Source of the DNA: Fimbriimonadaceae bacterium
GTDB taxonomy: Bacteria > Armatimonadota > Fimbriimonadia > Fimbriimonadales > Fimbriimonadaceae
Assembly (NCBI GenBank): GCA_023957775.1
Contig: JAMLGR010000020.1
Span: forward strand, 1 to 64,000
Direction: 5' to 3'
Length of the DNA: 64,000 nt
The position numbers and the translations under genes were made by a program. Each line of letters begins with the position of its first letter. Position 1 is the stretch's first letter. The notes beneath the pieces were generated by a model. The model searched no databases. It was not told the origin of the DNA and was given only the letters and a program-made list of their open reading frames with translations. Of this stretch, positions 2,318 through 63,155 are shown piece by piece.

Positions 2318-2323
2318 TATCAT
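2318..2323 (+). promoter_or_regulatory. -10 box of a leaderless promoter for the 2330 gene
   Basis: TATCAT ends 6 nt before the ATG at 2330 and there is no Shine-Dalgarno sequence. With the usual 6-7 nt from -10 to +1, transcription would start at the start codon. No clear -35 is visible. Confidence 0.5.
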
Positions 2324-2329
2324 ACGACC

Positions 2330-4447
2330 ATGGTATGGGTTGCCGCCTTTCTTCCCCTGCTTGGGCACTGCCTCGGCCCCGACGCCGTGGACTTCGATGC
2401 GAAGGCCGCGCCCTTAGGCCAGGTGCTCGAGAGGCTCGCGGCGGGCACGGGCTCGAAACTGGCCGCTTCGCCCAAGATCGCGCGCGAGATCGTGTTCGTA
2501 CACGTCCAGGGCGTCCGGTTGGACGAGCTCAAAGCGAAACTGGCGGAGGCGGTGGTGGGAGAGTGGACCCGCGAGGGCGAGACCGAGGTGCTTGGCCGCG
2601 GCCCGGCGCAGGAACGCGCGATCCGGAGCGAGCACCTCGCGTACCGGCGCAAGTTGGTGGACGCGGCGCTCAAGGACGCCCAGGCGGAGCTGGAACATCC
2701 GTACAACGCCCGGGCGCTGGCCGCGGGATTCGCCGCTCTCCCTACCGAGGCGTCGGTCCGAAACGATCTGACGGCCGGGCGGGCGCGCTACCTCCGCGAG
2801 CGGTCCCTTATCGCACAAGGGCCGCTCTCGAGGCTCCTCAAGCGCCTGGTGCTTGCGTGTGATCCTCGCGACCTTGCGGCGGTCGGACCTTTCTCAAGGG
2901 CCCTGTTCACGACGAGCCCAACCCAGATGCAACGCGGCTTCGATCGGAAGAAGTTCGATGCTGCGGTGGCACTGTTTGCCAAGGAGCAGCAGGCCTGGAT
3001 CGACGAGGCCGCGAAAGTCACCCTCGCGCCGGACCCCGGCGCCACCGTGAGCGATCCCCGCACGCAACTTCGATTCAGTCCGTCCCAGTCCCGGTTCGTC
3101 CTCGAAGTGCGGCGGGGCGAGATGACCGCCCTGTTCAACGTCAATCTCCAGATCGGCAAAGCCCCCTGGGGCCAGATTGTCAACCAGGCGAGCTTTGCGG
3201 ACCCGGCCCGCTCCTTCATGGACGCGCACATGTTGCCGGGACCACCCCTCGCGGACGATAGGGAGGTCGAGCTGTCGCCGGACTCCAGGGAGTTCGAAGA
3301 CGCGTTTCGGATTGCCGCCGAGGCTGCGACGCCGGCGACCATAACCCCCAAACTGCGGCAGCTCATGCTCGGCGTCGAAACGAACGATCCGCTGAGCTGG
3401 GTCGTGAGCGATGCGCTCGCGGCCTACGCCGAAGTCAAAGGCGTCAACCTGGTTGCGGCCGTGCCCGATCGCGCGCTCACTTGGGCGCACTTCATGGCGC
3501 GTGGGCAACCCCTTCGGGTCAAGACGTTCATGCAGGCGCTTCTGGGCTCGGAGACCGTGCGGCTCGACGAGACCGAAGGGTGGGCCGTTCTCGTGCCGGC
3601 GGACCGCTTCGAGGCCGCGCTCGATTTCACTCCCAGAAGCGCGGTGGCCGCGCTCGTCAAGAGCGTGTTCGAGCACGGCCGCCTCGATATGAAGGAGTAC
3701 GCGCGATACGCCTTTGCCTCGAAGCGGCTCAATCGGGGCGGAATCGGAGACTGGTTCCTCGCCATGATCGATCGCTCGGTGCTCGGGGCGAGCGATCGCA
3801 CCGACTGGAATGGCCTGAGGCTCTACGGCTCCCTGAGTGAACTCCAACAGCGGGACCTGGAAGCGGGCGCCCGGCTGCCGTACGCAGGCATGAATCTCGA
3901 ACAGCGCGCCATCATCGAGCGGATCGTTTTCGGTGGCGAGATTCGGAGCGAGGTGCAGACCGGTAGCGGAATCACCAAACTCTCCGCGACGTCCGTCGAA
4001 CCGACCGACGCGTTTCCCACGGGAGTGCCGGCGACTTGTGTGGTGACCGGGCGGTCCCTGGTCCACCCCACACTGGTCGCCTACGGCAAGGACGCCGAGG
4101 GCACCGTTCGGCCGCTTCGAGGGCTGGACCCCTCCAATTTGGCGGGAATCGAACTCAACGTTCGAGGCGATCCCGAACAGATGGCGATCTACGGCGTGGC
4201 CAACCTGGTGGGATACGCACCCGGCGCGGATAAGAAGGTGATGCTGCGCGTCGAAGTGGTGCCCGGCGTTTGGACCGAGAGCGTGATCACGATCGCCGAT
4301 TACGATCCCAAGGCGAACCCTGTCTCCTGGGAACAGTTGCCTGAGCCCTATCGGGAGCAGATCGCCAAGGCCATCGAGTCGATCAGGGCCCGAAAGGCGA
4401 ACCCGCCCACGCGAAGCGTTCCGCCGCCCCGCAGGAGATATCCCTAA
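2330..4447 (+). CDS. secreted protein with N-terminal STN/secretin-like domain
   Basis: About 705 aa. I chose the ATG at 2330 over the upstream GTG at 2285 because it gives a short hydrophobic signal peptide (MVWVAAFLPLLGHCLG) and sits 6 nt after a TATCAT hexamer. The first ~70 mature residues (VDFDAKAAPLGQVLERLAAG and on) have the beta-alpha pattern of the STN domain found in secretins and TonB receptors: a short interval that solves for a 'set' of conserved strands around an alpha helix. The remaining ~600 residues match nothing I recognise; there is no secretin beta-barrel signature and the C-terminus is basic and proline-rich (RSVPPPRRRYP). Likely exported; function unknown. Confidence 0.75.
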   Translation: MVWVAAFLPLLGHCLGPDAVDFDAKAAPLGQVLERLAAGTGSKLAASPKIAREIVFVHVQGVRLDELKAKLAEAVVGEWTREGETEVLGRGPAQERAIRSEHLAYRRKLVDAALKDAQAELEHPYNARALAAGFAALPTEASVRNDLTAGRARYLRERSLIAQGPLSRLLKRLVLACDPRDLAAVGPFSRALFTTSPTQMQRGFDRKKFDAAVALFAKEQQAWIDEAAKVTLAPDPGATVSDPRTQLRFSPSQSRFVLEVRRGEMTALFNVNLQIGKAPWGQIVNQASFADPARSFMDAHMLPGPPLADDREVELSPDSREFEDAFRIAAEAATPATITPKLRQLMLGVETNDPLSWVVSDALAAYAEVKGVNLVAAVPDRALTWAHFMARGQPLRVKTFMQALLGSETVRLDETEGWAVLVPADRFEAALDFTPRSAVAALVKSVFEHGRLDMKEYARYAFASKRLNRGGIGDWFLAMIDRSVLGASDRTDWNGLRLYGSLSELQQRDLEAGARLPYAGMNLEQRAIIERIVFGGEIRSEVQTGSGITKLSATSVEPTDAFPTGVPATCVVTGRSLVHPTLVAYGKDAEGTVRPLRGLDPSNLAGIELNVRGDPEQMAIYGVANLVGYAPGADKKVMLRVEVVPGVWTESVITIADYDPKANPVSWEQLPEPYREQIAKAIESIRARKANPPTRSVPPPRRRYP

Positions 4448-4534
4448 GCCTCTTGATGAACCCTTGCACTCGCTGGAAGCCTCTTCAAGGGCAGGTCCCC
4501 CGCTCAGAATCCGACGGGGACCGGTGCACACACC

Positions 4535-5902
4535 ATGAATCAACGCAACGGATCCTCCCACTTCACAGCGCTCGTCGCCCTCGTCCTTGTCCTCGCGGCG
4601 CCGCCGCAGCTCGCCGCTCAGGGAATGGGCCGGGGCAACCAGCAGGACATGGCGACCATCCACGCCCTCCTGGGTAACAACACCAAGATCAAGCGCACGG
4701 TCACCAAGCTCAAGAACGGCGTGGAGACCCTCACCGAGTCCAGCGATCCCGCGGTCGTCGCGATGATTCAGGCGCACGCGGCGGCGATGCAGGCGCGCCT
4801 GAAACAACGGCGGCCGATCCGCCAGTGGGATCCGCTCTTCGTGGAGCTCTTCGCCAACGCCTCGAAGATCACTTTTGCCATGGAGAAGACCGAGCGCGGG
4901 GTACGCGTAGTCGAGACCTCCAAGGACCCCTACGTGGTCACCCTGATCCAGTGGCACGCCGAAGGGGTCAACGGATTCGTCAAGGAGGGGATGGCGGGCA
5001 TGCACAAGGAGCACCCGGCGCCTCCGAAACCCGGCGGTGGAACGGCCAACGCCTTCGCCGGGATGGGCGATGGGGTGTCGACCTGCCCGGTCACGGGAGA
5101 ACCGGTCAGCAAGGACGTGTCGGCCGCGATCCAGGGCCGGACGGTCTACTTCTGCTGCGCCGGGTGCGTGGAGAAGGTGCGCGCCGAACCCGCGAAGTAC
5201 CTGAAATGGGCCCGCGCCGAAGGCACGCCTCCGCTTCAGAGCATGCTCGCGTTCGATGCCGTCTACATCCCGGCCCTCTCGTGGACGAGCCAGGCGCAAA
5301 CCGACCCGGACGCGGCCGTCAAGGCCGTGGCTTCAACGAAAGCGCTGGCCCAGCGATGGCCGGCCGAGCGGGCGAGCCTCATGGAGGCGTTTCCAAGCGA
5401 CTCCCGCTGGGCCGCGGAGTTGGATCGCGTGGGCCGGCAGATCGCAAGCGGTGCGAAACAGGCCGAAGCGAAGGAGTTCGCGGGTGCCCACGAGGCGCTC
5501 GAAGCGGTCCGCTTGATCCTCATGGAGGGCCGAAAGCGCAACGGTTTGGAGTACTTCGTCGACCGCCTGACGGCGTTCCACGAGCCGATGGAGGCCATCG
5601 TCCTAGCCGCCAAGGGCAAGCGCCCTTCCCAACTCGATTCGCGCCTCAGAGCCACCCTTGAGCTCGAGCTTCTGCACGCCGAGACGCTCTGGCTCGCCGT
5701 CGACGCCCAGATTCCGGACGCCGAACGCTACGGGCTGACTCCGCAGCAAGAAGCCCGCCTGCGACGGGCGATGACGGACGAGACCACTGCGCTGATGACC
5801 CTGCGGTCGGCTCTGGCCACCGGAACCCCCGCGCAGGTGCTGAATGCCGCCGTCTCCCTGAAGCCGCCCTTCGCCAAGCTGTTCACCACCTTCGGCCGCT
5901 AA
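4535..5902 (+). CDS. exported protein with a duplicated 60-residue unit and a YHS/TRASH-like metal domain
   Basis: 455 aa with a signal peptide (residues ~1-29, ending LAAQ). Two related units lie exactly 60 residues apart: NGV at 61 / DPAVVAMIQAH at 71-81 and RGV at 121 / DPYVVTLIQWH at 131-141. Residues 184-223 form a YHS-like domain with CPVTG (C184), YFCCAGC (C207, C208, C211) and a following EPAKYL helix; such domains bind metal ions. The last ~220 residues are helical with no recognisable motif. A periplasmic metal-binding or metal-sensing role is an inference from the YHS domain; no metal transporter is adjacent. No SD or -10 box is obvious upstream. Confidence 0.75.
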   Translation: MNQRNGSSHFTALVALVLVLAAPPQLAAQGMGRGNQQDMATIHALLGNNTKIKRTVTKLKNGVETLTESSDPAVVAMIQAHAAAMQARLKQRRPIRQWDPLFVELFANASKITFAMEKTERGVRVVETSKDPYVVTLIQWHAEGVNGFVKEGMAGMHKEHPAPPKPGGGTANAFAGMGDGVSTCPVTGEPVSKDVSAAIQGRTVYFCCAGCVEKVRAEPAKYLKWARAEGTPPLQSMLAFDAVYIPALSWTSQAQTDPDAAVKAVASTKALAQRWPAERASLMEAFPSDSRWAAELDRVGRQIASGAKQAEAKEFAGAHEALEAVRLILMEGRKRNGLEYFVDRLTAFHEPMEAIVLAAKGKRPSQLDSRLRATLELELLHAETLWLAVDAQIPDAERYGLTPQQEARLRRAMTDETTALMTLRSALATGTPAQVLNAAVSLKPPFAKLFTTFGR

Positions 5903-5917
5903 GAGGTGCTGAAAGGT

Positions 5918-5999
5918 GCCACGCCCAGCCGGGCGTGCAGGCGGGTCGCCGCAGGAGATGCGCAAGAAGTGAGGTGCCACGCCCGCTAGTCGGGCGTGC
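5918..5999. repeat. pair of short palindromes of the GCCACGCCC...GGGCGTGC type
   Basis: Two hairpins after the 5902 stop: CACGCCC-AGCC-GGGCGTG (about 5920-5937) and CCACGCCCG-CTAGT-CGGGCGTG (about 5978-5998), each preceded by GAGGTG or AAGGTG. The same motif recurs at 39813-39838 and 39864-39886, so it is a dispersed element rather than a gene-specific terminator. Confidence 0.7.
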
Positions 6000-6028
6000 C
6001 TCCCGTCCCTCCTGGCCAAAATGAACCC

Positions 6029-6559
6029 ATGATGATCGCCCTCCTTGCCGCTCAGTCGATCGTACTGGGCGACGCGCTGGTGGAGCTGAGAACGTCCCAA
6101 GACCCCAGCGTCCGCGTGTCGATCCGAGGCCGGTCGGTCTGGGAAGGGGTGCCGAAAGCCCACCAGCCGTGGAAGCTTGCCGGCGGGGACATCGACGGCA
6201 ACGGCCTTCCCGACTTCGCCGTGGGCGTCTTCAAGTCCACGCACATCTACCCCCACGCCCACCGCACGGTGTTCTTCTTCGAGCTTCGCGAAGGCAAGGT
6301 CGTGCCGAAGTGGAAGGGCTCGTCCCTCGGGCGTCCCCTGGTGGACTTCGTGTACGCCCAGGTTCAGGGGAAACCCAAGCTGGTGGCCTTGCAGCGCCGG
6401 CTCGACGACTCGCTCGGGCTGTTCGTTTGGAGTTGGAACAGGTTTGGTTTCCGCCTCGATCGCGAGATGGGACGCTGGTCGCAGGCGACGCTGGGCGCGA
6501 CTCGGCCGGATTTCGTCGAAATCCGCGCCGGTACGGGGTCGGAATGGGCGAAACTGTAA
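6029..6559 (+). CDS. small protein with an FG-GAP-like segment
   Basis: 176 aa. Start placed at the ATG ATG pair (6029/6032); CAAAAT ends 6 nt upstream and there is no SD. A short N-terminal hydrophobic stretch (MMIALLAAQSIVLGDALVEL) is a weak signal peptide. The motif GGDIDGNGLPDFAVG (near residue 50) resembles the calcium-loop D-x-D-G-N-x-x-D of FG-GAP/VCBS repeats, but only one unit is present. It ends 4 nt before the DUF3160 gene, so the two are probably co-transcribed. Function unknown. Confidence 0.6.
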   Translation: MMIALLAAQSIVLGDALVELRTSQDPSVRVSIRGRSVWEGVPKAHQPWKLAGGDIDGNGLPDFAVGVFKSTHIYPHAHRTVFFFELREGKVVPKWKGSSLGRPLVDFVYAQVQGKPKLVALQRRLDDSLGLFVWSWNRFGFRLDREMGRWSQATLGATRPDFVEIRAGTGSEWAKL

Positions 6560-6563
6560 TCAA

Positions 6564-8540
6564 ATGAGTCTCGTCGCGCTCGTCCTCGCCCTTCAGGCGC
6601 CCTTTGCGGCACCGGCGCTCAGCCCGGACCTCCACGAGGTCGCGAACCTCAAGGCCTTCGTCGAGGCCGCCCCGCTTGCGCCGGAGCATCGGCGCAAGCT
6701 CGCGCAGGACCTCTTCTTCATCTCGCCTGCGGACATGCCGCTCCCGCACTACGTCTACGGGCAGAACGACTACGAGAACATCCCCTCGCTGGTGACCACG
6801 GACTCGGTGCTGCACCTGTTTCACGTCGCGTTCGACTCCACGCTGAGGAACATGGAGCAGGGGCCCCTCTACGACCGGGTCGGGGCGTTGACCAAACACC
6901 TGCTCGCCGCGGCGATCCAGGTCCGCGCGCAACGGAAGACCACGGCTGGCCACTCCGCCGCCACCCGCGTCATCGCCTATGTCGGGGTCGCGGACCGGTT
7001 GCTGGGGCAGACGTCGCCTTTGCCTGCCGACGTGAAGCCGCTCGTGGGCGACGAACTGGTTGCGATCAAGGACGCGAAGGGATTTGTGCCGAGCAACGTG
7101 GTTCCGTCGAAGGTCGATATGAGCCAGTTCCTGGTGCGGGGTCACTACACGCGCTCGCCCAGACTCCAGCGCTACTTCCGCACGATGATGTGGTACGGGC
7201 TGGTTCCCCTGCAGCTCAAGACCCAAGCGGGCGCGCTGGACGCCGTGGGAACCCGGATGGCCATTTCCCTGGCGCAAGCGGTCCGCGACGGGCGGCTCGA
7301 GGCCGAGTGGCAAGCGGTGTACGAACCCACCACGCTCTATGCGGGGTCGGTGAACTCCCTCACACCCCTCATGGGGATCTCGGTGCTCAAGGAGTTGGGT
7401 GGGGATCCCGAAGCCGTCGATCTTCAGCAGTTCGCCGACGCCATGGCCAAGCTGGATCCTGCGATCTACCGGCCGAGCATCAAGCTCCAAAGCGGCATCG
7501 CGCAGGGAGTGGTGATGAAGTTCATGGGCCAGCGCGGGCTGTTGGACGGCTGGGTCATCAGCCGCGTCACGGGGCTCGAGCGTCCCCTGCCCACGGGGCT
7601 CGACGTGATGGCCGCGCTGGGTTCGAAGGCCGCCACCGACCTCATCGCGAAGTACCCCGACCAGGTGAACCCGCGCGGTTGGAACCTGTACCGGCCAAGG
7701 CTGGAAGAGGCGGCCGCGAAGGTCGACGCGTTGCCTGAAACCGAGTGGACGCGCAACCTCTATACGGGCTGGCTCAACGTCCTTCGGGCGAAGATCCAGC
7801 CCCCGACCCACGCGGTGCCGGCGTTCATGCGGAAGTCGGCATGGGCGCAAGCGTCGCTCTACGGCGCCTTGGCGAGTTGGGCGGAGTTGCGCCACGACAC
7901 GCTGCTCTACGGCGAGCAAACGGCCGTGGAGATGGGCGATGGCGACGAAGAGCCGCCGCCCTTGAAGGGCTTTGTCGAACCGAACGTCCCGTTCTTCGAC
8001 CGGCTCTCCGCCCTGGTGTCGCAAATGACGCGGGGGCTCGTGGCGCGCAAGCTTGTCGACTCAGACGCCCGCGAGAACCTCGGCGAACTTGCCGATCTCG
8101 TGGGCTTCCTGGGGAGTTGCGCGCGCAAGGAGGTGGCCGGTACGAGCCTCTCGCGAGAGGAGCACCTTCGCATCCGCCACCTCGAGGGCGAATTCGAAAA
8201 CATCACGGTCTCGATGCTGATGCGCGGGATGAACTTCAACACGCTGACCGAGGACGATCGCGATATGGCGCTCGTTGCGGACATCCACACGGCGGACCCT
8301 CTGGCGTTCACCGTCGCCGTGGGCCACGCCGACGACCTCATCGCGATCGTGCCGATCGATGGGAAGCTCTATCTCGCGCGCGGGCCCGCGTTCAGCTACT
8401 ACGAATTCACGGTGCCCATGAGCGAGCGGATGAGCGACGAGCAGTGGAAGAGCCGGTTGCGCGAGGGAAAAGCGCCGCCACGGCCGTTCTGGGTCCCCTC
8501 GTTCTTCGTCGCCAAGCCCGCAAGGCACGACGACCAGTGA
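6564..8540 (+). CDS. DUF3160 family protein
   Basis: 658 aa from the ATG at 6564, 4 nt after the previous stop. The N-terminus (MSLVALVLALQAPFAAPALS) is a signal peptide. The segment IPSLVTTDSVLHLFHVAFDS near residue 75 is the signature of DUF3160, a large secreted family of unknown function. The downstream gene overlaps its stop by 4 bp (GTGA), so an operon 6029-9373 is likely. Confidence 0.8.
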   Translation: MSLVALVLALQAPFAAPALSPDLHEVANLKAFVEAAPLAPEHRRKLAQDLFFISPADMPLPHYVYGQNDYENIPSLVTTDSVLHLFHVAFDSTLRNMEQGPLYDRVGALTKHLLAAAIQVRAQRKTTAGHSAATRVIAYVGVADRLLGQTSPLPADVKPLVGDELVAIKDAKGFVPSNVVPSKVDMSQFLVRGHYTRSPRLQRYFRTMMWYGLVPLQLKTQAGALDAVGTRMAISLAQAVRDGRLEAEWQAVYEPTTLYAGSVNSLTPLMGISVLKELGGDPEAVDLQQFADAMAKLDPAIYRPSIKLQSGIAQGVVMKFMGQRGLLDGWVISRVTGLERPLPTGLDVMAALGSKAATDLIAKYPDQVNPRGWNLYRPRLEEAAAKVDALPETEWTRNLYTGWLNVLRAKIQPPTHAVPAFMRKSAWAQASLYGALASWAELRHDTLLYGEQTAVEMGDGDEEPPPLKGFVEPNVPFFDRLSALVSQMTRGLVARKLVDSDARENLGELADLVGFLGSCARKEVAGTSLSREEHLRIRHLEGEFENITVSMLMRGMNFNTLTEDDRDMALVADIHTADPLAFTVAVGHADDLIAIVPIDGKLYLARGPAFSYYEFTVPMSERMSDEQWKSRLREGKAPPRPFWVPSFFVAKPARHDDQ

Positions 8541-10226: not shown

Positions 10227-10250
10227 GGGAAGAGAGGATACCGCTGGGGG

Positions 10251-11403: not shown

Positions 11404-11409
11404 AGGATA
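11404..11409 (-). promoter_or_regulatory. -10 box of a leaderless promoter for the HAF/PEP-CTERM gene
   Basis: TATCCT on the minus strand ends 6 nt before the ATG at 11397, with no SD. A heptad array begins 25 bp further upstream, where a -35 or UP element would lie. Confidence 0.5.
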
Positions 11410-20056: not shown

Positions 20057-20062
20057 TAGAAT
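20057..20062 (+). promoter_or_regulatory. -10 box of a leaderless promoter for the Y-family polymerase
   Basis: TAGAAT ends 7 nt before the ATG at 20070. This decides the start: the ATG at 20061 would lie inside the -10 hexamer. Confidence 0.5.
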
Positions 20063-21831: not shown

Positions 21832-21859
21832 AGTATACACAAATTAGATGGTTAGTCAA
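21832..21859 (-). promoter_or_regulatory. sigma-70-type promoter of marR, leaderless
   Basis: TTGACT (21859-21854), 16-bp spacer, TATACT (21837-21832), then 6 nt to the ATG. It is the best -35/-10 pair in the window and implies that the mRNA begins at the start codon. MarR autoregulation at this site would be typical. Confidence 0.75.
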
Positions 21860-28727: not shown

Positions 28728-28820
28728 TCCAAGAACCTACCCCCCGCGGGGACGAGCCCGCCAGAAACCCCGGCGAGAGCCACTGCGAACGTTCTGGCCC
28801 GGCAAATCGACGAGTTTTGT

Positions 28821-31416: not shown

Positions 31417-31464
31417 GTTTTACCCTGCGCCCCGTTCGGGTTCACTCCTTGCCTGCACCATAAT
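31417..31464. promoter_or_regulatory. divergent leaderless -10 boxes for serC and tgt
   Basis: On the minus strand TAAAAC (31422-31417) ends 7 nt before serC. On the plus strand CATAAT (31459-31464) ends 7 nt before tgt. Neither gene has an SD. Confidence 0.5.
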
Positions 31465-34777: not shown

Positions 34778-34882
34778 GGAGGAGGTTTACCCGGCGGGCG
34801 TTGCACGCCCGTGTTGGGTTTTGAGGTCCCCATTGCGTCTTTGCGTTCTTTGCGTGATACCCCCGGGAGGAGGCAGGCGGTG

Positions 34883-35915: not shown

Positions 35916-35964
35916 GGGAATCGGGGATCGGGAATCGGGAATCGGGAATCGGGGATCGGGATTC
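35916..35964. repeat. heptanucleotide array (GGGAATC)
   Basis: Seven heptads: GGGAATC, GGGGATC, GGGAATC x3, GGGGATC, GGGATTC. It ends 5 bp before the TACAAT -10 box of the GH57 gene, occupying the -35 region. Confidence 0.9.
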
Positions 35965-35969
35965 CCGTC

Positions 35970-35975
35970 TACAAT
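35970..35975 (+). promoter_or_regulatory. -10 box of a leaderless promoter for the GH57 gene
   Basis: TACAAT ends 6 nt before the ATG at 35982; no SD and no separate -35 besides the heptad array. Confidence 0.5.
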
Positions 35976-38576: not shown

Positions 38577-38596
38577 CGCGCCGGTAATCTCCGCGC

Positions 38597-42727: not shown

Positions 42728-42769
42728 ATTCTACAAGAACCGGGGTTGTTGGCCAGCCCGTGCCACAAT
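42728..42769. promoter_or_regulatory. divergent leaderless -10 boxes for mtaB and lpxK
   Basis: TAGAAT on the minus strand (42733-42728) ends 6 nt before the mtaB GTG. CACAAT on the plus strand (42764-42769) ends 7 nt before the lpxK ATG. The gap is only 55 bp. Confidence 0.45.
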
Positions 42770-42776: not shown

Positions 42777-43766
42777 ATGGTGCCGACGCAGGTGTGGGAG
42801 GGCCGTTCGCTGGGCGCGCGCGCGCTGCGCACGTTGCTGTACCCCCTGTCGCTGCTCTACGCGGCGGGATGGCGGCTTTACCTCTTGGTCTACCGCTGGG
42901 GGCTCAAGCGACCTGTGGAAGCGCATCGGCCGGTCGTGTGTGTGGGAAACCTCGCGACCGGAGGAAGCGGCAAGACCCCCTTGACGGTGCACCTCGCCGA
43001 ACGGATCGCCGCCTCCGGTCGCAAGGTCGTCGTCGGGTGCAGCGGCTATGGCGGGCCCCACGAATCGGGTGCGACCCTCGCCCCGGCGGGGCCGCTCCGG
43101 GCGTCGGAGTGGGGGGATGAGCCGGCGCTGTTGCGCGAGCTTCTGCCCGCCGTGCCGCTTGTCGTGGGCCGTGCGCGCGTCGAGGCGGCGAGGCGCGTCG
43201 CCGAGGCGCATCCCGACGCTGTGCTCCTGATGGACGACGGGTTTCAACATCTGCCCCTCGTCAAGCACGTCCAGATCGTCCTCCAGTCGAACTCTCCCAA
43301 CACGATGTGCCTTCCCGCGGGTCCCCTTCGCGAGCCGCCGAACGCCCTGCGTCGGGCCGACTTGGTGCTTCCCGGGACGTTCGGCGTGGTCGCGGATCCG
43401 CTCGTGCTGGAGAGTCCCCAGGGAGGAAGGGTCGAAGTCGCCGACTCGGCGTCGGTGTTGTGCGCGATCGGCCGTCCCGACAGCTTCTGCGATGCGCTGA
43501 GGGCCATGGGGCTGACGCTCGATCCAATCCTCGTCCTCCCCGATCACGACCCGTTGACGGAAGGTAACCTCCTTGAGCGATTGCCAAGCGACCAACCTGT
43601 CGTGGTGACCGCCAAGGATTGGGTGAAGCTGCGGGAGCGGAGCGACGCGGGGGAGCGCAGGTGGTTGGTTGCGCGCCACCGGGTCCGCCTCGAGCCTGCG
43701 GACGCCTTTGCGGCATGGCTGGATCGTAAACTCGATGAAGTGGAGTCGCGTTCAAAAGAAGCTTGA
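42777..43766 (+). CDS. lpxK: tetraacyldisaccharide 4'-kinase
   Basis: 329 aa. N-terminal membrane helix (RTLLYPLSLLYAAGWRLYLL), Walker A CVGNLATGGSGKTPLTVHLA, Walker B-like VLLMDDGFQH, and PVVVTAKDWVKL near the end, all LpxK hallmarks. It phosphorylates the lipid A disaccharide at the 4' position on the inner face of the inner membrane, so the cell makes lipid A and has an outer membrane. First gene of an LPS operon; the next gene overlaps its 3' end by 32 bp. Confidence 0.93.
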   Translation: MVPTQVWEGRSLGARALRTLLYPLSLLYAAGWRLYLLVYRWGLKRPVEAHRPVVCVGNLATGGSGKTPLTVHLAERIAASGRKVVVGCSGYGGPHESGATLAPAGPLRASEWGDEPALLRELLPAVPLVVGRARVEAARRVAEAHPDAVLLMDDGFQHLPLVKHVQIVLQSNSPNTMCLPAGPLREPPNALRRADLVLPGTFGVVADPLVLESPQGGRVEVADSASVLCAIGRPDSFCDALRAMGLTLDPILVLPDHDPLTEGNLLERLPSDQPVVVTAKDWVKLRERSDAGERRWLVARHRVRLEPADAFAAWLDRKLDEVESRSKEA

Positions 43767-44637
43767 GGGCCGCTTGGGTGCGCTCGCGTTTGCCGTGGGT
43801 CAGATGTGGTTCGTGCGCAAGTCCCCGGAGGCCGCCGAACGCTCGGGAGAGCGCCTGGGCCGATTCTTCTTTCGCACGTTCGGCAAGTTCCGCGAGCGGG
43901 CGCGCTCCAATCTCGCACTCGCCCTGCCGGAGCTGGACGAAGCCGAGCGCGAGCGGATCGCACGCGAGGTGTTCCTCCATTTCGGACGCGTCATCGCTGA
44001 CTTCCTTCGAACGAAGGGACGATCCCAGCAAGAGGTGATGGACGGCTATGTCGAGATCGTCGGCATGGAACACCTCGACGCGGCAAGTGCCCTGGGGAAG
44101 GGTGTGGTCATAATCACCGGCCACTTCGGCAATTGGGAGCGGGCCGCGGCTTATTTCTCCGCGATCGGGACGCCGCTCCACGTGGTGGCGCGCGATGCCG
44201 ACGACGAGCAATTGAACGCGATGGTGGGCGAGCTGCGCGAGGCGGCCGGGCTCAAGGTCCTTTCCCGGGGCAGCGCCATGCGCGGGATCCTGACCACCCT
44301 GAGGCGGAACGGCTATGTGGCGATCTTGCCCGACCAGAACACCGAGGAGTCCTACGTGCCGTTCTTCGGGATGCCGGCCGGGACCGTGCAGGGGCCCGCG
44401 GTGATCCACTACCGGACCGGTGCGCCGATCATCCCGATCTACTCCATCTGGTTGGGCCCGAACCGGTACCGACTCGAGGTGCACTCACCCTTGGCAGCCG
44501 ACGAGGGTTTCGACGAGGTGGAGGGCATGACGCGCGCGGTGAACCGATCGATCGAGGAGGCGATCCGCCGCCACCCCGAACAGTGGCTCTGGCTGCACGA
44601 CCGTTGGAAATCCGCCCGCCGCAAGGGGTTGCTGTGA
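43735..44637 (+). CDS. lysophospholipid/lipid A acyltransferase (LpxL/HtrB family)
   Basis: 300 aa. The acyltransferase active-site motif is ITGHFGNWERAA, of the H-x4-E type that marks this branch of the family; then RGSAMRGILTTLRRNGYVAILPDQN and VPFFGMPAGTVQGPAV. It transfers secondary acyl chains to Kdo-lipid A at the inner membrane; whether lauroyl or myristoyl cannot be told. It starts within lpxK and overlaps the following GT9 gene by 4 bp. Confidence 0.9.
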   Translation: MKWSRVQKKLEGRLGALAFAVGQMWFVRKSPEAAERSGERLGRFFFRTFGKFRERARSNLALALPELDEAERERIAREVFLHFGRVIADFLRTKGRSQQEVMDGYVEIVGMEHLDAASALGKGVVIITGHFGNWERAAAYFSAIGTPLHVVARDADDEQLNAMVGELREAAGLKVLSRGSAMRGILTTLRRNGYVAILPDQNTEESYVPFFGMPAGTVQGPAVIHYRTGAPIIPIYSIWLGPNRYRLEVHSPLAADEGFDEVEGMTRAVNRSIEEAIRRHPEQWLWLHDRWKSARRKGLL

Positions 44638-46973: not shown

Positions 46974-47737
46974 AGGTGTTCGACTCGGACCCCCAGTTGC
47001 GCTGGCTCTTCTGCCTCACCCACCCCGATGACGAGATCGCCATCTGCGCCTGGATTCGCGTGCTGACCTCCCATGGCGTCGAGGTGTTCTTAAGCTGGAC
47101 GCACGACACCCCCGTGCGCGAGGCCGAGGCCCGGGCCGCCGCGGATCGCCTTGGAGTCCCGCAGGACCGGCTCTTCTTCCACCACGCCCAAGACGGTTTG
47201 GCGTTGGAGGAGCTCGCCCTCCTCAAGGCCAGCTTTCAGACGATGATGAACGCCGTCCAGCCGGATCGCGTCGCCTGCGGCGCGTTCGAGCACGGGCACC
47301 TCGACCACGACGCGACCAACTTCTTGGTCAACCACACGTTCGGGGGTGTCGTTCTCGAGTTTCCGCTCTACCATCCGTACCTCACCTGGCTCCAAACGTT
47401 GAATCGGTTTTCGGATCCCACGGGCGAAGAGGTGTTGCGGCTCAGTCCCGAGGAGCGGCGTTTCAAGAGCGCGTTCAGCAAGCACTATCCCAGCCAGAAC
47501 ATCCGTCGCGTCCTCGTCTGGTACGAGGTGTACCGCGCGATGACGCTCCGGCCGCTGGACCTGCGGGACACGGAGCGGATGCGCGTCCAAACGCACAAAG
47601 ACTTCTTGACGCCCAACGCCCCTCCGAAGCTGGCTGCGAGGATCCTCGCGTCGCCCCAATGGAAGCGGTGGTGCGCCGCGGTGGCACCCCATCTCGGCGT
47701 CCCCGACCCCGTCGTGGCGCGAACGTCTACACTGTAG
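46970..47737 (+). CDS. PIG-L (LmbE) family deacetylase
   Basis: 255 aa, ATGA overlap with the previous gene. Zinc motif CLTHPDDEIAICAW (H-x-D-D), FEHGHLDHDATN (the H-x-x-D-H motif), and PQWKRW near the end. Soluble, unlike the membrane-anchored paralogue at 15450. Its place inside the LPS operon suggests it deacetylates a GlcNAc of the core or of a core precursor, but this is inference. The C-terminal ~80 residues (RFKSAFSKHYPSQNI on) are longer than in minimal PIG-L enzymes. Confidence 0.8.
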   Translation: MKVFDSDPQLRWLFCLTHPDDEIAICAWIRVLTSHGVEVFLSWTHDTPVREAEARAAADRLGVPQDRLFFHHAQDGLALEELALLKASFQTMMNAVQPDRVACGAFEHGHLDHDATNFLVNHTFGGVVLEFPLYHPYLTWLQTLNRFSDPTGEEVLRLSPEERRFKSAFSKHYPSQNIRRVLVWYEVYRAMTLRPLDLRDTERMRVQTHKDFLTPNAPPKLAARILASPQWKRWCAAVAPHLGVPDPVVARTSTL

Positions 47738-54508: not shown

Positions 54509-54509
54509 T

Positions 54510-56621: not shown

Positions 56622-56642
56622 CTCGTTTCAGCTTCGAATTCG

Positions 56643-56671: not shown

Positions 56672-56732
56672 TGACGCGCGCATTCATTATAGAGTGAGGC
56701 CCGTGGGACCCCCCGTGTAAACTGGTGCCGCC

Positions 56733-57938
<1,206 letters not shown>

Positions 57939-58069
57939 ACGTTCGCCCGTCGGGCGGGCGTGGAACGGGTTAGCGGGTGTCGAAGGACGACCTCGGAGAG
58001 GTCGCAGACGGTGCCCGGGGTCGAGTTGCAGCGAGACCCCGGGCTCAAAGGGCGCCTTCGCGCACCCGG
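57939..58069. repeat. gap with a G+C-rich palindrome
   Basis: After the kbl stop: CGCCCG-TCGG-GCGGGCG, then a larger inverted repeat GCCCGGGGTCGAG / AGACCCCGGGC with a short loop (about 58013-58044). It may act as a weak terminator for kbl. No gene. Confidence 0.5.
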
Positions 58070-58573: not shown

Positions 58574-58648
58574 GAACCTTCTCCTTACTCTCCCATCGGT
58601 GAGGACGCACGGGTGCATGGATTGTTCGGTTGGGAGGCGCGGAGGGGG

Positions 58649-58687
58649 CGTTTCACGCAGAGGCGCAGCGGCGCAGAGGGTTTCACG
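58649..58687. repeat. copy of the TTTCACGCAGAGGCGC repeat
   Basis: GCGTTTCACGCAGAGGCGCA and GGTTTCACGC, related to copies near 32.6 and 33.4 kb. It is cut on its right side by the MITE-like element. Confidence 0.7.
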
Positions 58688-58919
58688 CTAGTGTAGTGTC
58701 TCACTAATCTCAGGGCAGCGAGGCCCCGGTTGGGCCCTCTGGCTCCCTTCGCCCCTCTGGGGGAGAGGGGCTAGTGAGGGGCCCGTTTTGGCGCGGTTTC
58801 AGCTTCAATTCCAGCGATCCGGACCCCTCACCCCCAGCCCCTCTCCCCCGGAGGGGCGAGGGGTGCCTCTTGCGCCTTTCGCCACGGCCCGCTGGGAAAC
58901 TAGTGAGACGCTACACTAG
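58688..58919. mobile_element. MITE-like element, ~232 bp
   Basis: Terminal inverted repeats CTAGTGTAGTGTCTCACTAA (left) and CTAGTGTAGCGTCTCACTAG (right, reverse complement), ~19 of 21 matching. Inside is a second, long hairpin built from CCCCTCTGGGGGAGAGGGG and its partner ending GGAGGGGCGAGGGG. No transposase. The right end supplies the stop codon (58916-58918) of the pseudopilin-like gene. The left flank is another repeat copy, so it probably inserted there. Confidence 0.7.
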
Positions 58920-59437
58920 CTCTTCGGCGGGGTGGCTTCGATGGCGCCGCCGACCTGCAGTACGTTGTTCTGGTGCAGGTGCCGCTCGGGCTTGGGCATC
59001 GACTCGATGCCGCCCACCGCGTTGCGACCTGGGATGTTCGAATCGAACACGAGCGGGGTCTTGGGATCCTCGATCTTCTCGCGTTCCATCCCCACGACCT
59101 CGGCGTTCAAGGCGTAGCCGTATTCGGGGTCGACCGAAGGGCAGTGCAGGAACTTCTCGCGGGGCATGCGGCCGCCCAGGGCATCCATCCACTCGGCCGT
59201 CGGGTAATGGCCGTCGAAGTCGGCGGTGTACATATCGAGGGCGCCCCCGATCTGCCTCAGGTACAGCCGGCAGTCCGACGCGCGCTTGAGCTCGCGGCCC
59301 TGCGCGAGCGCCGGGAGGAGAAGGGCGGGAACGATGAGAAGGCAGCAGCCCGTGGCGAGAATCGCGACGACCGCCCACATCATCGGCGAGCGGCCGGGTT
59401 TGTTTTGCGGGGGGCTCGGCGCGCCGAAATCATCCAT
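58916..59437 (-). CDS. pseudopilin/DUF1559-like membrane protein
   Basis: 173 aa. One N-terminal helix (WAVVAILATGCCLLIVPALL) then LLLPALAQGRELKRASDCRL, YLRQIGGALDMYTADFDGHY, a pattern typical of the many pseudopilin-like proteins of Armatimonadota (KARQ-x-C-x-S-N-x-K-Q-x-G-x-A-x-x-M-Y). No prepilin peptidase site (G/F-T-L-x-E) at the N-terminus, so it may be a relative and not a true pilin. TGATG overlap with the next gene upstream. The stop lies in the MITE-like element. Confidence 0.75.
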   Translation of the reverse strand: MDDFGAPSPPQNKPGRSPMMWAVVAILATGCCLLIVPALLLPALAQGRELKRASDCRLYLRQIGGALDMYTADFDGHYPTAEWMDALGGRMPREKFLHCPSVDPEYGYALNAEVVGMEREKIEDPKTPLVFDSNIPGRNAVGGIESMPKPERHLHQNNVLQVGGAIEATPPKS

Positions 59438-60099
59438 CAGGGTCGGTCCACGAGCTTGGCTCGGACGGCCTTCATCGCCGCCTCGGTGCGGCTGTTGACC
59501 TGGAGCGCCTTGAGGATGTTGCTCACGTGGTTCTTGACCGTCTTCTCGGCGATGCAGAGACGGTTGGCGATCTCCTTGTTCCGCAGGCCTTGGGCCACGA
59601 GCTCGAGGATCTCGCTCTCGCGGTCGCTCAACACGAACAGCTCGGTGTCGTCGGTCTCCTCGTCTTCGCGGATGCGCCGGAAGTCTTCGATCACCTTCGT
59701 GGCGATCTTGGGCGTGATCTTGGCCTCGCCGCGCTCGGCCAGGCGAATCGCTTCGATGACGTCCTGGGGCGTCGAGCTCTTCAACAGGTAACCCAGGGCG
59801 CCCGCGCGAAACGCGTCGTAAACGATGTCCGAGTCCTCTTCGACGGTGAGGATCACCACGCGGACATCTTTCTCGGTCTTCAGGAGTTGGCGCGTGACCT
59901 CGATGCCGCTGAGGGCCGGCATGTTGATGTCGGTGAGCAACACGTCGGGCGGATCGGCCAGGCACGCGTCCAGCGCTTCGCGCCCATCCTTGCACACGGC
60001 GACCAGTTCGCACTCCGGCATCAGCGTCAGCGTCCGTTGCAGTGCGCTTCGATAGGGAGCCTCGTCATCAGCGACGACGACTCGGATCGTTTCGGGCAT
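59437..60099 (-). CDS. NarL/FixJ-family response regulator
   Basis: 220 aa. Receiver domain: VVVADDEAPYRSAL (acidic pocket), DVLLTDINMPALSG with the phosphoryl-acceptor Asp, VVILTVEEDSD, GYLLKSS. C-terminal LuxR helix-turn-helix: LSDRESEILELVAQGLRNKE and IANRLCIAEKTVKNHVSNIL. No histidine kinase is adjacent, so the input is unknown. The gene starts leaderless after TATACT. The pseudopilin-like gene follows with an overlapping start. Confidence 0.9.
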   Translation of the reverse strand: MPETIRVVVADDEAPYRSALQRTLTLMPECELVAVCKDGREALDACLADPPDVLLTDINMPALSGIEVTRQLLKTEKDVRVVILTVEEDSDIVYDAFRAGALGYLLKSSTPQDVIEAIRLAERGEAKITPKIATKVIEDFRRIREDEETDDTELFVLSDRESEILELVAQGLRNKEIANRLCIAEKTVKNHVSNILKALQVNSRTEAAMKAVRAKLVDRP

Positions 60100-60105
60100 G
60101 CGGCG

Positions 60106-60122
60106 AGTATACAAGGCATAAT
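60106..60122. promoter_or_regulatory. divergent leaderless -10 boxes (NarL regulator and oppD)
   Basis: On the minus strand TATACT (60111-60106) ends 6 nt before the regulator ATG. On the plus strand CATAAT (60117-60122) ends 7 nt before oppD. The two starts are only 30 bp apart. Confidence 0.5.
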
Positions 60123-60129
60123 CTCCCCC

Positions 60130-61089
60130 ATGCCCGTGCTGGAAGTGCGCGACTTGGAACTCTCCTTCGGCGACGTCGCCGTGCTGCGGGGTGTTTCGTT
60201 CGACCTCGAGGCCGGCAAGACGTTCGGCGTCGTCGGCGAGAGCGGCTGCGGGAAGTCGATGACGGGATTCGCCCTGATGGGCATGGTTCCCACCGGGGGC
60301 CGCATCACCGGAGGGTCCATCGTGTTCGAGGGGCGCGACCTCACGCAGCTTCGGCCGCGCGAATGGCTGGACGTCCGCGGCGAAAAGATCGCGCTCGTGA
60401 TGCAGGACCCGTTCACGAGCCTCAATCCGATGATGCGGATCGGTGATCAGATCGGCGAGGTGCTGCGCCTCCATCACGGCCTCTCCAAGCAGGCGGCTTG
60501 GACTCAGGCCGTGGAGATGCTCGAGAAGGTGGGCGTGCCCGTGCCGGAGAGCTCGGCGCGCAAGTTTCCGCACCAGATGAGCGGCGGCCAGCGCCAACGC
60601 GTCGTGCTCGCCATGGCCTTCGCCTGCAAACCGCAGGTGCTTATCGCGGACGAGCCGACGACAGCCCTCGACGTGACTCTTCAGGCACAGATACTACGGC
60701 TCATCCAAGAGCTCAAGGACCAGGTCGGCACCGCGGTGATGCTCATCTCGCACGACATCGGGGTCATCGGCACCTTGGCGAGCCGCATCGGAGTGTTCTA
60801 CGCCGGGCGGATCGTCGAGGCCGGGGCCTCGGAAGACGTGCTTCGCCGACCCGAACATCCTTACACCCGTGCCCTGCTCAATGCGTTGCCCCAGCCCGGG
60901 GCGGTGCGACTGGAGGCGATCCGAGGCTATCCGCCCGACTTTGCGACCCTCGGGACGGCGTGCTCCTTTGCCCCCCGCTGCCCGTTCCGATTCGAGAAGT
61001 GCGACCGGGAACCGGACCTGATTCCGGTATCGACAGACCACGCTTCGGCCTGCTGGAAGGCGGGGGTTCTGGAGCCAGCGCGCGAGTAG
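60130..61089 (+). CDS. oligopeptide/dipeptide ABC transporter ATP-binding protein (OppD/DppD)
   Basis: 319 aa. Walker [15 protein letters not shown]-loop [14 protein letters not shown] signature [18 protein letters not shown], Walker [16 protein letters not shown]-loop LISHDIGVI. The C-terminal [4Fe-4S]-type motif of OppD/DppD is present: [20 protein letters not shown] then SACW. Energises peptide uptake. Orphan: no permease or binding protein gene is beside it; the other subunits must be elsewhere. Confidence 0.9.
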
Positions 61090-61092
61090 TAT
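61087..61092 (+). promoter_or_regulatory. -10 box of a leaderless promoter for the M28 peptidase
   Basis: TAGTAT ends 6 nt before the ATG at 61099 and overlaps the oppD stop codon (TAG). No SD. Confidence 0.5.
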
Positions 61093-61098
61093 GGGGGC

Positions 61099-62844
61099 AT
61101 GAGCCACGCCCTCCTGCTGCTCCTGACGATAGTCCAGGGGCCCCATTTCGACGCTGCGGAACTCGCTCGGCACGTGCAATTCCTCGCTTCGCCCGCCCTG
61201 GAGGGACGCATGACGCCGAGCCCAGGACTATCCAAAGCCGCCGACTATCTCGCCGCCCAGTTCAAGAGCTACGGACTGAACGAGGGGCCGAACAAGGGGT
61301 ACCGCTGGTCCTACGAGGTTGCGATCAACCAGCGTCCCGCCAAGAACAACATGCTGGTTTTCCTGCGGCTCGACGGCAAGAGCACCTCGTTCGAGCTCGG
61401 GCGGGACTTCGTCCCCCTCTTCGGCTCGAAGGACAACCACATCGTCCGTGGGGAACTGGTGTTCGTCGGGTACGGCGCGGACGAGAAAGATTACGAGATG
61501 GAGGACGAGGAGGGCGGCGGCGAGCGACCCTTCGACGTGAAGGACAAGGTCGTGATGATGTTTGCGCGCACTCCGGCGGACATGCCGCAGCTGTCGCGCT
61601 CGGCGAAGGCTGAGATGGCGCGCGAGCGTGGCGCGGCCGGCGTGATCTTCCTCGGGCCGTCGGCGCCCGGTCGTCCCCAGCTTCCGCGCACCGTGCGGGG
61701 CCAGGGGCTCTCGGGAGACGGAGACCTGGTGGGGGTAGGCCTTGCCGAGCACGCCTTGAACGCGCTGATCGAGGTCGAAACGATGCACTCGGTGGCCGTG
61801 CGCCACGAGTCGCGCCCATTGCCCTTCACCGTCCGCATGGTCACCGAGACCGAGCCAAACAAGGCGAGGGTCGACGACATCGTGGGTTACCTGCCGGGCC
61901 GCGACCCGAAGCTGAAGGACGAGTTCATCGTGATCGGGGCGCACTACGATCATCTCGGTTACGGGGAGATCGGCTCCCGATCGCAAACCGACGCGATCCA
62001 CCCCGGCGCCGACGACAATGCGAGCGGCACCGCTGGTGTGCTCGCCTTGGCCAAGTACTACGCGGCCAAGAAGACGAACCGACGATCGCTCATCTTCGTG
62101 CTGTTCAGCGGCGAGGAGGAGGGGTTATTGGGTTCCGAAGCGTGGGCCAAGGGCCATCCCAACACGCTTGAACGAACGGCCGCCATGATCAACCTCGACA
62201 TGATCGGCCGTCTGCGCAAGGGCGAGCTGTTCGCCTACGGCACCAGCAGCAGCGACGTGTGGACCCGCATCCTCGCCAAGATCGAGGTTGCCGGGGTGAA
62301 CCTCAAGCCGGGAGCCCAGACGCGCGGAGACAGCGACCAGGCCTCCTTTGCCAGGCGCAACGTGCCGGTCTTGTTCTTCAACACGGGTTTGCACGACGAG
62401 TACCACACCGAGAAGGACACCGCGGCGACGATCGACGCCGACGGGATGGCCAAGGTGCTCGCCGTCGTGGCCGAGACCGTGGCCGCCGTGGATGCGCTCG
62501 ACGCCAAGCCCGTCTTCTCGAAGGATGTGGTGCTGGGCAATCTGCCCGGGGATCGCGACGCCGAAAGCTCGCAGCGCTCGATCCGCGTGGGCATGGTGCC
62601 CGACATGGTCGCAGGGGGCCCGGGTTTGCGGATCAGCGGAACGTCGCCCAACAGTCCGGCCCAAAAGGCTGGGTTCAAGGCGGGGGACCGAATCGTCGAG
62701 TTCAACGGAAAGAAGGTCTCAGACCTCGAGACCTTGCAGGCCGCCTATCTGACCGCGAAACCCGGGGACACCGTCAAGATCGTCTTCATCCGCGACGGAG
62801 TGAGGCGCGAGCAGTTGGTCACCGTCGAAGGGCGCGGCGGTTAG
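61099..62844 (+). CDS. M28 family zinc aminopeptidase with C-terminal PDZ
   Basis: 581 aa. Signal peptide (SHALLLLLTIVQGP). N-terminal cap, PA domain (DKVVMMFARTPADMPQ), then the M28 core with zinc ligands in GAHYDHLGYG, HPGADDNASGTAGVLAL, FSGEEEGLLGSEAW (catalytic Glu-Glu), NLDMIGRL and GLHDEYHTEKDT. The last ~90 residues form a PDZ domain (GLRISGTSPNSPAQKAGFKA, then GDRIVEFNGKKV). Removes N-terminal amino acids from peptides outside the cytoplasm. Follows oppD closely; a link between peptide degradation and uptake is plausible. Confidence 0.9.
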   Translation: MSHALLLLLTIVQGPHFDAAELARHVQFLASPALEGRMTPSPGLSKAADYLAAQFKSYGLNEGPNKGYRWSYEVAINQRPAKNNMLVFLRLDGKSTSFELGRDFVPLFGSKDNHIVRGELVFVGYGADEKDYEMEDEEGGGERPFDVKDKVVMMFARTPADMPQLSRSAKAEMARERGAAGVIFLGPSAPGRPQLPRTVRGQGLSGDGDLVGVGLAEHALNALIEVETMHSVAVRHESRPLPFTVRMVTETEPNKARVDDIVGYLPGRDPKLKDEFIVIGAHYDHLGYGEIGSRSQTDAIHPGADDNASGTAGVLALAKYYAAKKTNRRSLIFVLFSGEEEGLLGSEAWAKGHPNTLERTAAMINLDMIGRLRKGELFAYGTSSSDVWTRILAKIEVAGVNLKPGAQTRGDSDQASFARRNVPVLFFNTGLHDEYHTEKDTAATIDADGMAKVLAVVAETVAAVDALDAKPVFSKDVVLGNLPGDRDAESSQRSIRVGMVPDMVAGGPGLRISGTSPNSPAQKAGFKAGDRIVEFNGKKVSDLETLQAAYLTAKPGDTVKIVFIRDGVRREQLVTVEGRGG

Positions 62845-62867
62845 TCCAATCGCGGCCGCGATCGTCC

Positions 62868-62873
62868 GACAAT
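62868..62873 (+). promoter_or_regulatory. -10 box (GACAAT) before the 62880 gene
   Basis: GACAAT ends 6 nt before the ATG at 62880; weak match but the spacing fits the pattern seen elsewhere. Confidence 0.35.
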
Positions 62874-62879
62874 AGGTCC

Positions 62880-63155
62880 ATGAGGTGTTTCGCGGTGGAC
62901 CTTCATGGCGAGAACTTCGTGATGGAGATCGAGGAGGACGTGCAGCGCGTCGAGTTCGAAGTCACGCGTTACGTCGAGGGCGAAACCGAAGAGGATGCGG
63001 AGCTCGCGGCCGTCGAGCTGGTTCGCGAGCGCCTCGCCCCTTCGATCCGCAACATCGACGGAGACCCGCCGATCGTGTACGTCAACGACGTGCGCGAGCT
63101 GCCCGAGGGGTTGCCGGACAAGCCGCAGCCAGGCTTCTTGTTCATCCATCCCTGA
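62880..63155 (+). CDS. small acidic hypothetical protein
   Basis: 91 aa, strongly acidic in the middle (VEGETEEDAELAAVELVRER). Start MRCFAVDLHGENFVMEIEED. One alpha/beta unit by eye; no known family. Followed by a heptad array and the convergent SbcC-type gene. Confidence 0.6.
   Translation: MRCFAVDLHGENFVMEIEEDVQRVEFEVTRYVEGETEEDAELAAVELVRERLAPSIRNIDGDPPIVYVNDVRELPEGLPDKPQPGFLFIHP

What the first reader, a model, noticed from the sequence alone, without database searches (positions are those of the whole stretch)
2318..62882. Widespread leaderless transcription signature
At least fifteen starts have a TANNNT-like hexamer ending 6-7 nt before the start codon and no Shine-Dalgarno sequence: 2330 (TATCAT), 11397 (TATCCT), 20070 (TAGAAT), marR 21825 (TATACT with TTGACT 16 bp upstream), 28727 (TAGGTT), serC (TAAAAC), tgt (CATAAT), 34777 (TAAACC), GH57 (TACAAT), 38597 (TAATCT), mtaB (TAGAAT), lpxK (CACAAT), ftsY (TACACT), 60099 (TATACT), oppD (CATAAT), 61099 (TAGTAT), 62880 (GACAAT). 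The marR promoter anchors the reading because it has both boxes. Leaderless mRNAs with this geometry are established in Deinococcus and actinobacteria; for this lineage I know of no description. Genes with good SDs (acs, 34883, 52044, 28920) look like a separate class.
Basis: partly seen in the sequence, partly recalled or inferred. Interest (0 to 1): 0.8.

Follow-up and report, generated by a model that had tools for sequence, protein, structure and literature searches.

The report
Leaderless mRNA promoters in Fimbriimonadia bacteria
Many genes of this little-studied bacterium (phylum Armatimonadota, class Fimbriimonadia) carry the promoter's -10 box only 6-7 bases before the start codon, so their messages very probably begin at the start codon itself with no ribosome-binding leader, as is already known for Deinococcus and actinobacteria.

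Summary
All 17 listed hexamers are in place, spacers 6 or 7 (11 strict TAnnnT, 6 off-consensus), none with a Shine-Dalgarno. With starts called blind to upstream sequence in 863 kb of the genome, 52 of 476 operon-first genes have TAnnnT at -13/-12 against 6.4 expected, best of 64 like patterns. TAnnnT-N6-ATG occurs 323 times genome-wide, N9 161 times. The genome belongs to Fimbriimonadia (Armatimonadota). Of 30 GH57-gene orthologs in its family (own copy included), 29 keep a box at this spacing while other upstream DNA is at chance identity. About one gene in six looks leaderless; tightly packed operon genes are mostly SD-led and the anti-SD is intact. The genome-wide excess is larger in this family (median N6/N9 1.31) and in part of one other, non-sister family (1.18) than in 117 other Armatimonadota (1.04, 88 also above 1). 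Best reading: leaderless expression of the Deinococcus kind, in a lineage where my searches found no description; no transcript data. New member of a known kind.

The parts
2318..2323 (+). -10 box TATCAT, spacer 6, start ATG 2330
   Evidence: score 6.3
11404..11409 (-). -10 box TATCCT, spacer 6, start ATG 11397
   Evidence: blind caller preferred GTG 11334
20057..20062 (+). -10 box TAGAAT, spacer 7, start ATG 20070 (DNA polymerase IV family)
   Evidence: blind caller preferred GTG 20094
21832..21837 (-). -10 box TATACT, spacer 6, start ATG 21825 (MarR-type regulator)
21854..21859 (-). -35-like TTGACT, 16 bp from the marR -10 box; untypical of TA-led genes
   Evidence: sequence
28734..28739 (-). 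-10-like TAGGTT, spacer 6, start ATG 28727 (MscS-like)
   Evidence: (low score 2.6)
31417..31422 (-). -10-like TAAAAC, spacer 7, start ATG 31409 (serC)
   Evidence: blind caller preferred GTG 31445, ATG 31409
31459..31464 (+). -10-like CATAAT, spacer 7, start ATG 31472 (tgt)
34784..34789 (-). -10-like TAAACC, spacer 6, start ATG 34777
35970..35975 (+). -10 box TACAAT, spacer 6, start ATG 35982 (GH57 branching enzyme)
   Evidence: box in 29 of 30 orthologs, own copy included
38585..38590 (+). -10 box TAATCT, spacer 6, start ATG 38597 (cystathionine gamma-synthase family)
   Evidence: (several profiles matched from residue 1-3); blind caller preferred GTG 38618
42728..42733 (-). -10 box TAGAAT, spacer 6, start GTG 42721 (mtaB)
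   Evidence: box in 16 of 29 orthologs, own copy included
42764..42769 (+). -10-like CACAAT, spacer 7, start ATG 42777 (lpxK)
47728..47733 (+). -10 box TACACT, spacer 7, start GTG 47741 (ftsY)
   Evidence: blind caller preferred ATG 47756
60106..60111 (-). -10 box TATACT, spacer 6, start ATG 60099 (NarL-type response regulator)
60117..60122 (+). -10-like CATAAT, spacer 7, start ATG 60130 (OppD-like); shares a 30-bp divergent spacer with 60099
61087..61092 (+). -10-like TAGTAT, spacer 6, start ATG 61099; its TAG is the stop codon of the preceding gene
62868..62873 (+). -10-like GACAAT, spacer 6, start ATG 62880
   Evidence: blind caller preferred GTG 62895

Best explanation
The hexamers are the -10 elements ([T/C]AnA[A/C]T) of promoters placed so that transcription starts on, or within a base or two of, the first base of the start codon. 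The mRNA then has no leader and no Shine-Dalgarno, and is expected to be translated by recognition of the 5'-terminal AUG/GUG. By excess over shifted controls, about 17% of all called genes, and about 23% of those not packed within 20 bp behind another gene, use this mode; tightly packed operon genes mostly use SD, with an intact anti-SD. The mode is a trait of the Fimbriimonadia family sampled here. Shown: motif, spacing, conservation, gene classes. Inferred: transcription start at the start codon, and the translation route.
For: Blind-start enrichment 52 of 476 vs 6.4, rank 1 of 64 patterns. Spacing peak at 6-7 with ATG in 863 kb without gene calling. EM seeded with TAnnnT learned A at position 4, A/C at position 5 and spacers 6-7. 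Genes with 20-49 bp gaps, not used in training: 21 of 57 over threshold vs 4 of 57 shifted; gaps under 20 bp: 14 of 195 vs 6 shifted and 17 shuffled. SD-like 4-mers in 3 of 81 strong TA-led genes but 46% of 195 tight operon genes; 16S ends GGATCACCTCCTT. GH57 orthologs, own included: box in 29 of 30, 0-2 in each of seven control windows, SD 1 of 30, ungapped upstream identity 0.27, protein aligned from residue 1 in 29 of 30. Family samples positive by the same pipeline: G114 16 of 177, 42 pooled loci 17 of 167. N6/N9 median 1.31 in 23 family genomes vs 1.04 in 117 others. Divergent spacers of 70 bp or less: 14% of 201 vs 1 of 71 in six other Armatimonadota. Controls: D. deserti 6 of 61, E. coli 1 of 78, S. 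meliloti pSymB 2 of 77.
Against: No transcript data. An EM class with neither motif takes about a third of operon-first genes, and EM on shuffled sequence also gives a 21% 'TA' class, so class sizes rest on the fixed-threshold excess, whose weights were fitted on most of the same genes. The box fills part of the SD window, which by itself lowers SD counts there. tgt orthologs keep a box in only 11 of 38 (0-4 in control windows) and mtaB in 16 of 29 (0-2). AAnnnA is also enriched at -13/-12, 20 vs 8.5. The gene-call-free spacing profile shows no clear peak in G114 (40, 39 at k=6, 7; 14-46 elsewhere), in the pooled loci or in G013. G080 (4 of 66) and G142 (4 of 51) are only p about 0.01-0.02. 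N6 exceeds N9 also in 88 of 117 other genomes; against the reversed-pattern control N6 is higher in 21 of 23 family genomes, median 1.14. No -35 consensus. The positive control D. deserti has long divergent spacers (median 578).
Confidence: 0.9

Rival explanations
1. A non-SD, AT-rich ribosome-binding signal or low-structure zone before the start codon (S1 binding, or the Bacteroidota type), not a promoter.
For: Such biases exist and are hard to tell from Pribnow boxes in composition profiles (PMC5397173 passages). AAnnnA is moderately enriched too, 20 vs 8.5.
Against: Of the eight A/T-only triples TAnnnT stands at 52 vs 6.4, while AAnnnT (3 vs 7.3), ATnnnT (4 vs 5.6), TTnnnA (7 vs 8.2) and TTnnnT (10 vs 7.7) are not enriched. 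It is rare in tightly packed operon genes, which need ribosome binding but no promoter (14 of 195).
Confidence: 0.05
2. Ordinary leadered promoters with wrongly chosen starts: the true start codons lie further downstream.
Against: GH57 and mtaB orthologs align from residue 1 in 29 of 30 and 26 of 29; the spacing peak is tied to start codons in 863 kb.
Confidence: 0.03
3. Chance plus reading bias: a few coincidental hexamers picked out of a 64-kb text.
For: 6 of 17 are off the stated consensus, one borrows a stop codon, and the CTG control inside the window is also raised at k=5-6.
Against: 52 vs 6.4 expected, shuffles at most 15; the whole-genome counts and the GH57 footprint.
Confidence: 0.01

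Closest known systems
-10 motif adjacent to ORFs / leaderless mRNA in Deinococcus-Thermus (PMC12340547 section 7 read; PMC3160421 abstract and section 7 read)
   Same: TANNNT with first T, A and last T nearly invariant, about 6-7 bp before the ORF, a separate GGAG class, conservation in orthologs, start re-annotation; the same pipeline gives 6 of 61 in D. deserti plasmid 1.
   Different: Different phylum; here roughly one gene in six against nearly one third in D. radiodurans; position 1 is C in about a fifth of boxes; no experiment.
Leaderless genes of Actinobacteria (PMC3160421; PMC3898074 seen in a search listing only)
   Same: High GC, TAnnnT, mixed SD and leaderless use.
   Different: This genome has lipid A genes (lpxK, LpxL-like acyltransferase), so it is presumably a diderm.
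SD-scarce classes in PMC10783764 (passages seen)
   Same: That survey gives Fimbriimonadia 25% SD-bearing mRNAs and Chthonomonadetes 70%, in line with the lower SD use of operon-first genes here (0.12-0.27 in Fimbriimonadia samples, 0.35-0.57 in six other families).
   Different: In the passages I saw it ties neither number to a -10 box or to leaderless mRNA in Armatimonadota.

Membership tests
TA-led (leaderless) genes in the sense of Zheng et al. 2011 | TA-like signal about 10 bp upstream of many start codons, above background | tested here: met
TA-led (leaderless) genes in the sense of Zheng et al. 2011 | TA signal and SD mark different genes | tested here: met
   SD-like in 3 of 81 TA-led genes, with the caveat that the box fills part of the SD window
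TA-led (leaderless) genes, as promoter-borne signal | Concentrated in genes that need their own promoter | tested here: met
   36.6% of 262, 21.5% of 214, 36.8% of 57 vs 7.2% of 195 genes with gaps under 20 bp
Leaderless mRNA (experimental definition) | Mapped 5' end within a few nt of the start codon | not testable with these tools
   no transcript data
Leaderless mRNA (experimental definition) | Translation from the 5'-terminal codon | not testable with these tools
   needs reporters or N-terminal proteomics
Classical two-box sigma-70 promoter | -35 hexamer 16-18 bp from the -10 | tested here: not met
   81 TA-led genes: no information at -35; TTGACA at 4 of 6 or better in 5 at spacer 16, 0 at 17, 2 at 18, 0-4 at other spacers; marR is a single exception

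The most novel reading that the evidence does not exclude
Bulk leaderless expression arose, or was kept, separately in two non-sister lineages of Armatimonadota (Fimbriimonadia and part of a second, unnamed family, f13), while relatives rely on SD. The phylum would then be a natural experiment on how a bacterium swaps its translation-initiation mode.
Probability: 0.4. Interest if true: 0.6.

Novelty: new member of a known kind. Interest (0 to 1): 0.42.

Why it matters
It adds a lineage, Fimbriimonadia, to the bacterial groups with abundant leaderless genes, and offers a reason for the low SD use already tabulated for it. In practice gene starts in these genomes should be called with a -10/leaderless model (6 of the 17 window starts move against a coding-only caller), and promoters can be read straight from the genome. 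Because sampled relatives in the same phylum lack the signal, gains or losses of leaderless expression become testable.

Tried and rejected
AT-rich or S1-type signal: disfavoured by the 64-pattern control, though AAnnnA is mildly enriched. Wrong starts: rejected for GH57 and mtaB by N-terminal conservation. The marR -35 box as anchor: rejected, no -35 signal. Class sizes straight from EM: not used, because shuffled upstreams also give a 21% TA class. The gene-call-free spacing profile works in the home genome but shows no clear peak in G114, G013 or the pooled loci. The reversed-pattern control of the whole-genome counts was not relied on: it also moves in families without an N6/N9 excess (for instance G010, N6 1322 vs reversed 829 and N9 1308 vs reversed 803). 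An SD-led contrast with acs orthologs could not be made: the search ran but no loci were cut. IQ-TREE failed, so FastTree was used, rooted on E. coli alone; deep nodes are not trusted.

Rows dropped: mtaB used 29 of 30 loci (the 34%-identity paralog L241 left out); GH57 used the 30 loci cut out of 36 genomes with matches; tgt used 38 of 42 loci (4 had no start found); serC had a hit in 9 of 42 loci. Blind-start counts leave out genes too near a stretch end (728 of 734 kept).
Full report
What was checked. All 17 sites exist as described: spacer 6 in 11 and 7 in 6, no SD-like tetramer at -18..-5 in any; eleven are strict TAnnnT. Gene names were confirmed with NCBIfam for serC, tgt, a GH57-type branching protein, mtaB and lpxK, and ftsY, an OppD-like ATPase, acs, a DNA polymerase IV family protein, an MscS-like channel and a cystathionine gamma-synthase family protein; the genes at 2330, 34777, 62880 and 11397 matched no NCBIfam model. 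The TAGTAT before 61099 starts with the stop codon of the gene before it (ORF end 61089), so that site is weak evidence.

Where it is. The window is contig C20:1-64000 of a 3.5-Mb, 27-contig genome. The 42 best loci for its Tgt protein, at 65-75% identity, carry titles of Armatimonadetes, Fimbriimonas/Fimbriimonadaceae/-ales/-ia or Chthonomonas (three say only 'bacterium'); the other 38 loci are at 46-55%, mostly other phyla. Placement in Fimbriimonadia is thus by record titles.

Is it more than chance? Genes were called with a self-trained coding model that never sees upstream sequence, in 863 kb of this genome (734 genes). Of 476 genes that are divergent or have a gap of at least 50 bp, 52 have TAnnnT starting at -13/-12; the flanks predict 6.4. 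Among all 64 patterns XYnnnZ it ranks first (ratio 7.6), CAnnnT second (2.6), AAnnnA third (2.2); AAnnnT is depleted. Shuffling each upstream 40-mer gave 6.7 on average and at most 15 in 500 rounds. Without gene calling, TAnnnT-Nk-ATG is 82 and 52 at k=6 and 7 against a mean of 23.5; GTG is slightly raised (53), CTG not clearly (41, with 44 at k=20). Inside the window alone the CTG control is raised at k=5 and 6 (7 each), so the case rests on the larger sample. Genome-wide, N6 gives 323 (reversed-pattern control 172) and N9 gives 161 (reversed 210).

What the box looks like. An EM fit recovers T/C, A, any, A, A/C, T with spacers 6 and 7 dominant. The strongest 81 TA-led genes have 61 ATG, 19 GTG and 1 TTG starts, an SD-like tetramer in 3, and no information at the -35 position. 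The marR promoter with TTGACT-16-TATACT is therefore not the model. In D. radiodurans the -10 motif is likewise described next to the ORF (section 7 of PMC12340547).

Which genes. At threshold 4 the box is found at 36.6% of 262 divergent genes, 21.5% of 214 co-directional genes with gaps of 50 bp or more, and 36.8% of 57 with gaps of 20-49 bp (not used in training), against 7-8% at positions shifted 29 nt up; at 195 genes with gaps under 20 bp it is 7.2%, against 3.1% shifted and 8.7% shuffled. Summed excess over the shifted control in the first three classes: about 121 of 728 genes (17%). SD-like tetramers are in 46% of the 195 tight genes and about 23% of operon-first genes, control 13%. The 16S 3' end carries CCTCC.

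Conservation. In GH57 orthologs from 30 genomes of the family (own copy plus 29 at 64-73% protein identity) a -10 box lies at the expected place in 29, in 0-2 for each of seven control windows, SD in 1, and the rest of the upstream DNA is at chance identity (0.27). mtaB: 16 of 29, own included (controls 0-2). serC: 7 of 9 (controls 0-1). tgt: only 11 of 38 (controls 0-4), SD in 6. Protein alignments start at residue 1 in 29 of 30 (GH57) and 26 of 29 (mtaB). This is the strongest single piece of evidence: the one thing kept upstream of GH57 is a -10 box at a fixed distance from the ATG.

Distribution. With one pipeline, Fimbriimonadia samples are positive: G114, a 5.23-Mb single-contig genome, 16 of 177, p 2e-6; 42 pooled loci 17 of 167, p 6e-9; G080 4 of 66 and G142 4 of 51, p 0.017 and 0.013, with TAnnnT second of 64. 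Six genomes of other Armatimonadota families give 0 or 1 of 58-66 each; controls: D. deserti plasmid 6 of 61 (TAnnnT second of 64), E. coli 1 of 78, S. meliloti pSymB 2 of 77. Whole-genome N6/N9 counts in 151 genomes: this family 23 of 23 above 1, median 1.31, range 1.05-2.01; family f13 11 of 11, median 1.18, with 1.62 and 1.56 in its genus g25; the other 117 genomes median 1.04, of which 88 are also above 1, with pooled excesses in f20, f22, f24 and f8. Above the 95th percentile of the others (1.21) are 17 of 23 and 4 of 11. Rank tests: p 3e-11 and 3e-6. Against the reversed-pattern control N6 is higher in 21 of 23 and 6 of 11. G013 of f13 also passes the gene-based test, 12 of 98, p 3e-5. 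A ribosomal-protein tree of 21 genomes plus E. coli joins f13 with f22 (0.999) and this family with f3 (0.989; f3 ratios 1.03 and 1.04), so the two families are not sisters there. The Fimbriimonadia samples also have shorter divergent spacers than the six other Armatimonadota (median 173 vs 280 bp; 70 bp or less in 14% of 201 vs 1 of 71), as expected when neither gene needs a leader, although D. deserti does not show this (median 578). The 60099/60130 pair has both boxes inside 30 bp.

Mechanism. A -10 box ending 6-7 nt before the start codon puts the usual start of transcription on the start codon (established knowledge of bacterial promoters). The mRNA would be leaderless and translated by 5'-terminal start recognition; that last step is inference from other bacteria.

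Prior knowledge. Zheng et al. 2011 (abstract and section 7 read) list groups with TA-led genes, among which Armatimonadetes is not named. PMC10783764 (passages) gives SD use of 25% for Fimbriimonadia and 70% for Chthonomonadetes. PMC9581028 (passages) cites GeneMarkS-2: 21.6% of bacterial species predicted leaderless. Searches for leaderless with Armatimonadetes, Armatimonadota, Fimbriimon- and Chthonomon- returned 2, 2, 1 and 2 papers; of these I opened only PMC10783764 and saw the others (PMC12574031, PMC7448276) as listings. Two broader searches listed 15 of 313 and 10 of 66 papers, no title on point. The library holds only open-licence papers and the GeneMarkS-2 paper is not held, so the trait may have been predicted there.

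Verdict. Real, widespread in this genome, conserved in its family; the mechanism is well supported but unproven by transcripts; the kind is known, the lineage is new as far as I could search.

Noticed in passing
G013, G074 and nine other genomes of unnamed family f13: A second Armatimonadota family shows the same kind of excess, strong in genus g25 (999 N6 matches against 616 N9 in G013), weak in most others; it groups with f22, not with Fimbriimonadia.
   Followed up: partly
window 60100-60129: Divergent pair with a 30-bp spacer that holds both -10 boxes; each gene's upstream promoter region lies in the other's coding sequence, so the two promoters may exclude each other.
   Followed up: partly
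L001 (G000:C2:203138-206521): By eye, the ribosomal protein operon looks broken just upstream of the gene following S8 (probably S14), with unrelated genes, one FliS-like, beyond it.
   Followed up: no
G152:C3:75991-77322 and G154:C1:1662627-1663949: MiaB/MtaB-like paralogs with one in-frame TGA each in two different genera; could be selenocysteine, frameshift or pseudogene.
   Followed up: no
window about 35932-35962: Short direct repeats (GAATCGG/GATCGGG type) just upstream of the GH57 promoter (sequence).
   Followed up: no
window 42777-44637: lpxK and an LpxL/LpxP-like acyltransferase: lipid A genes in this Armatimonadota genome.
   Followed up: no
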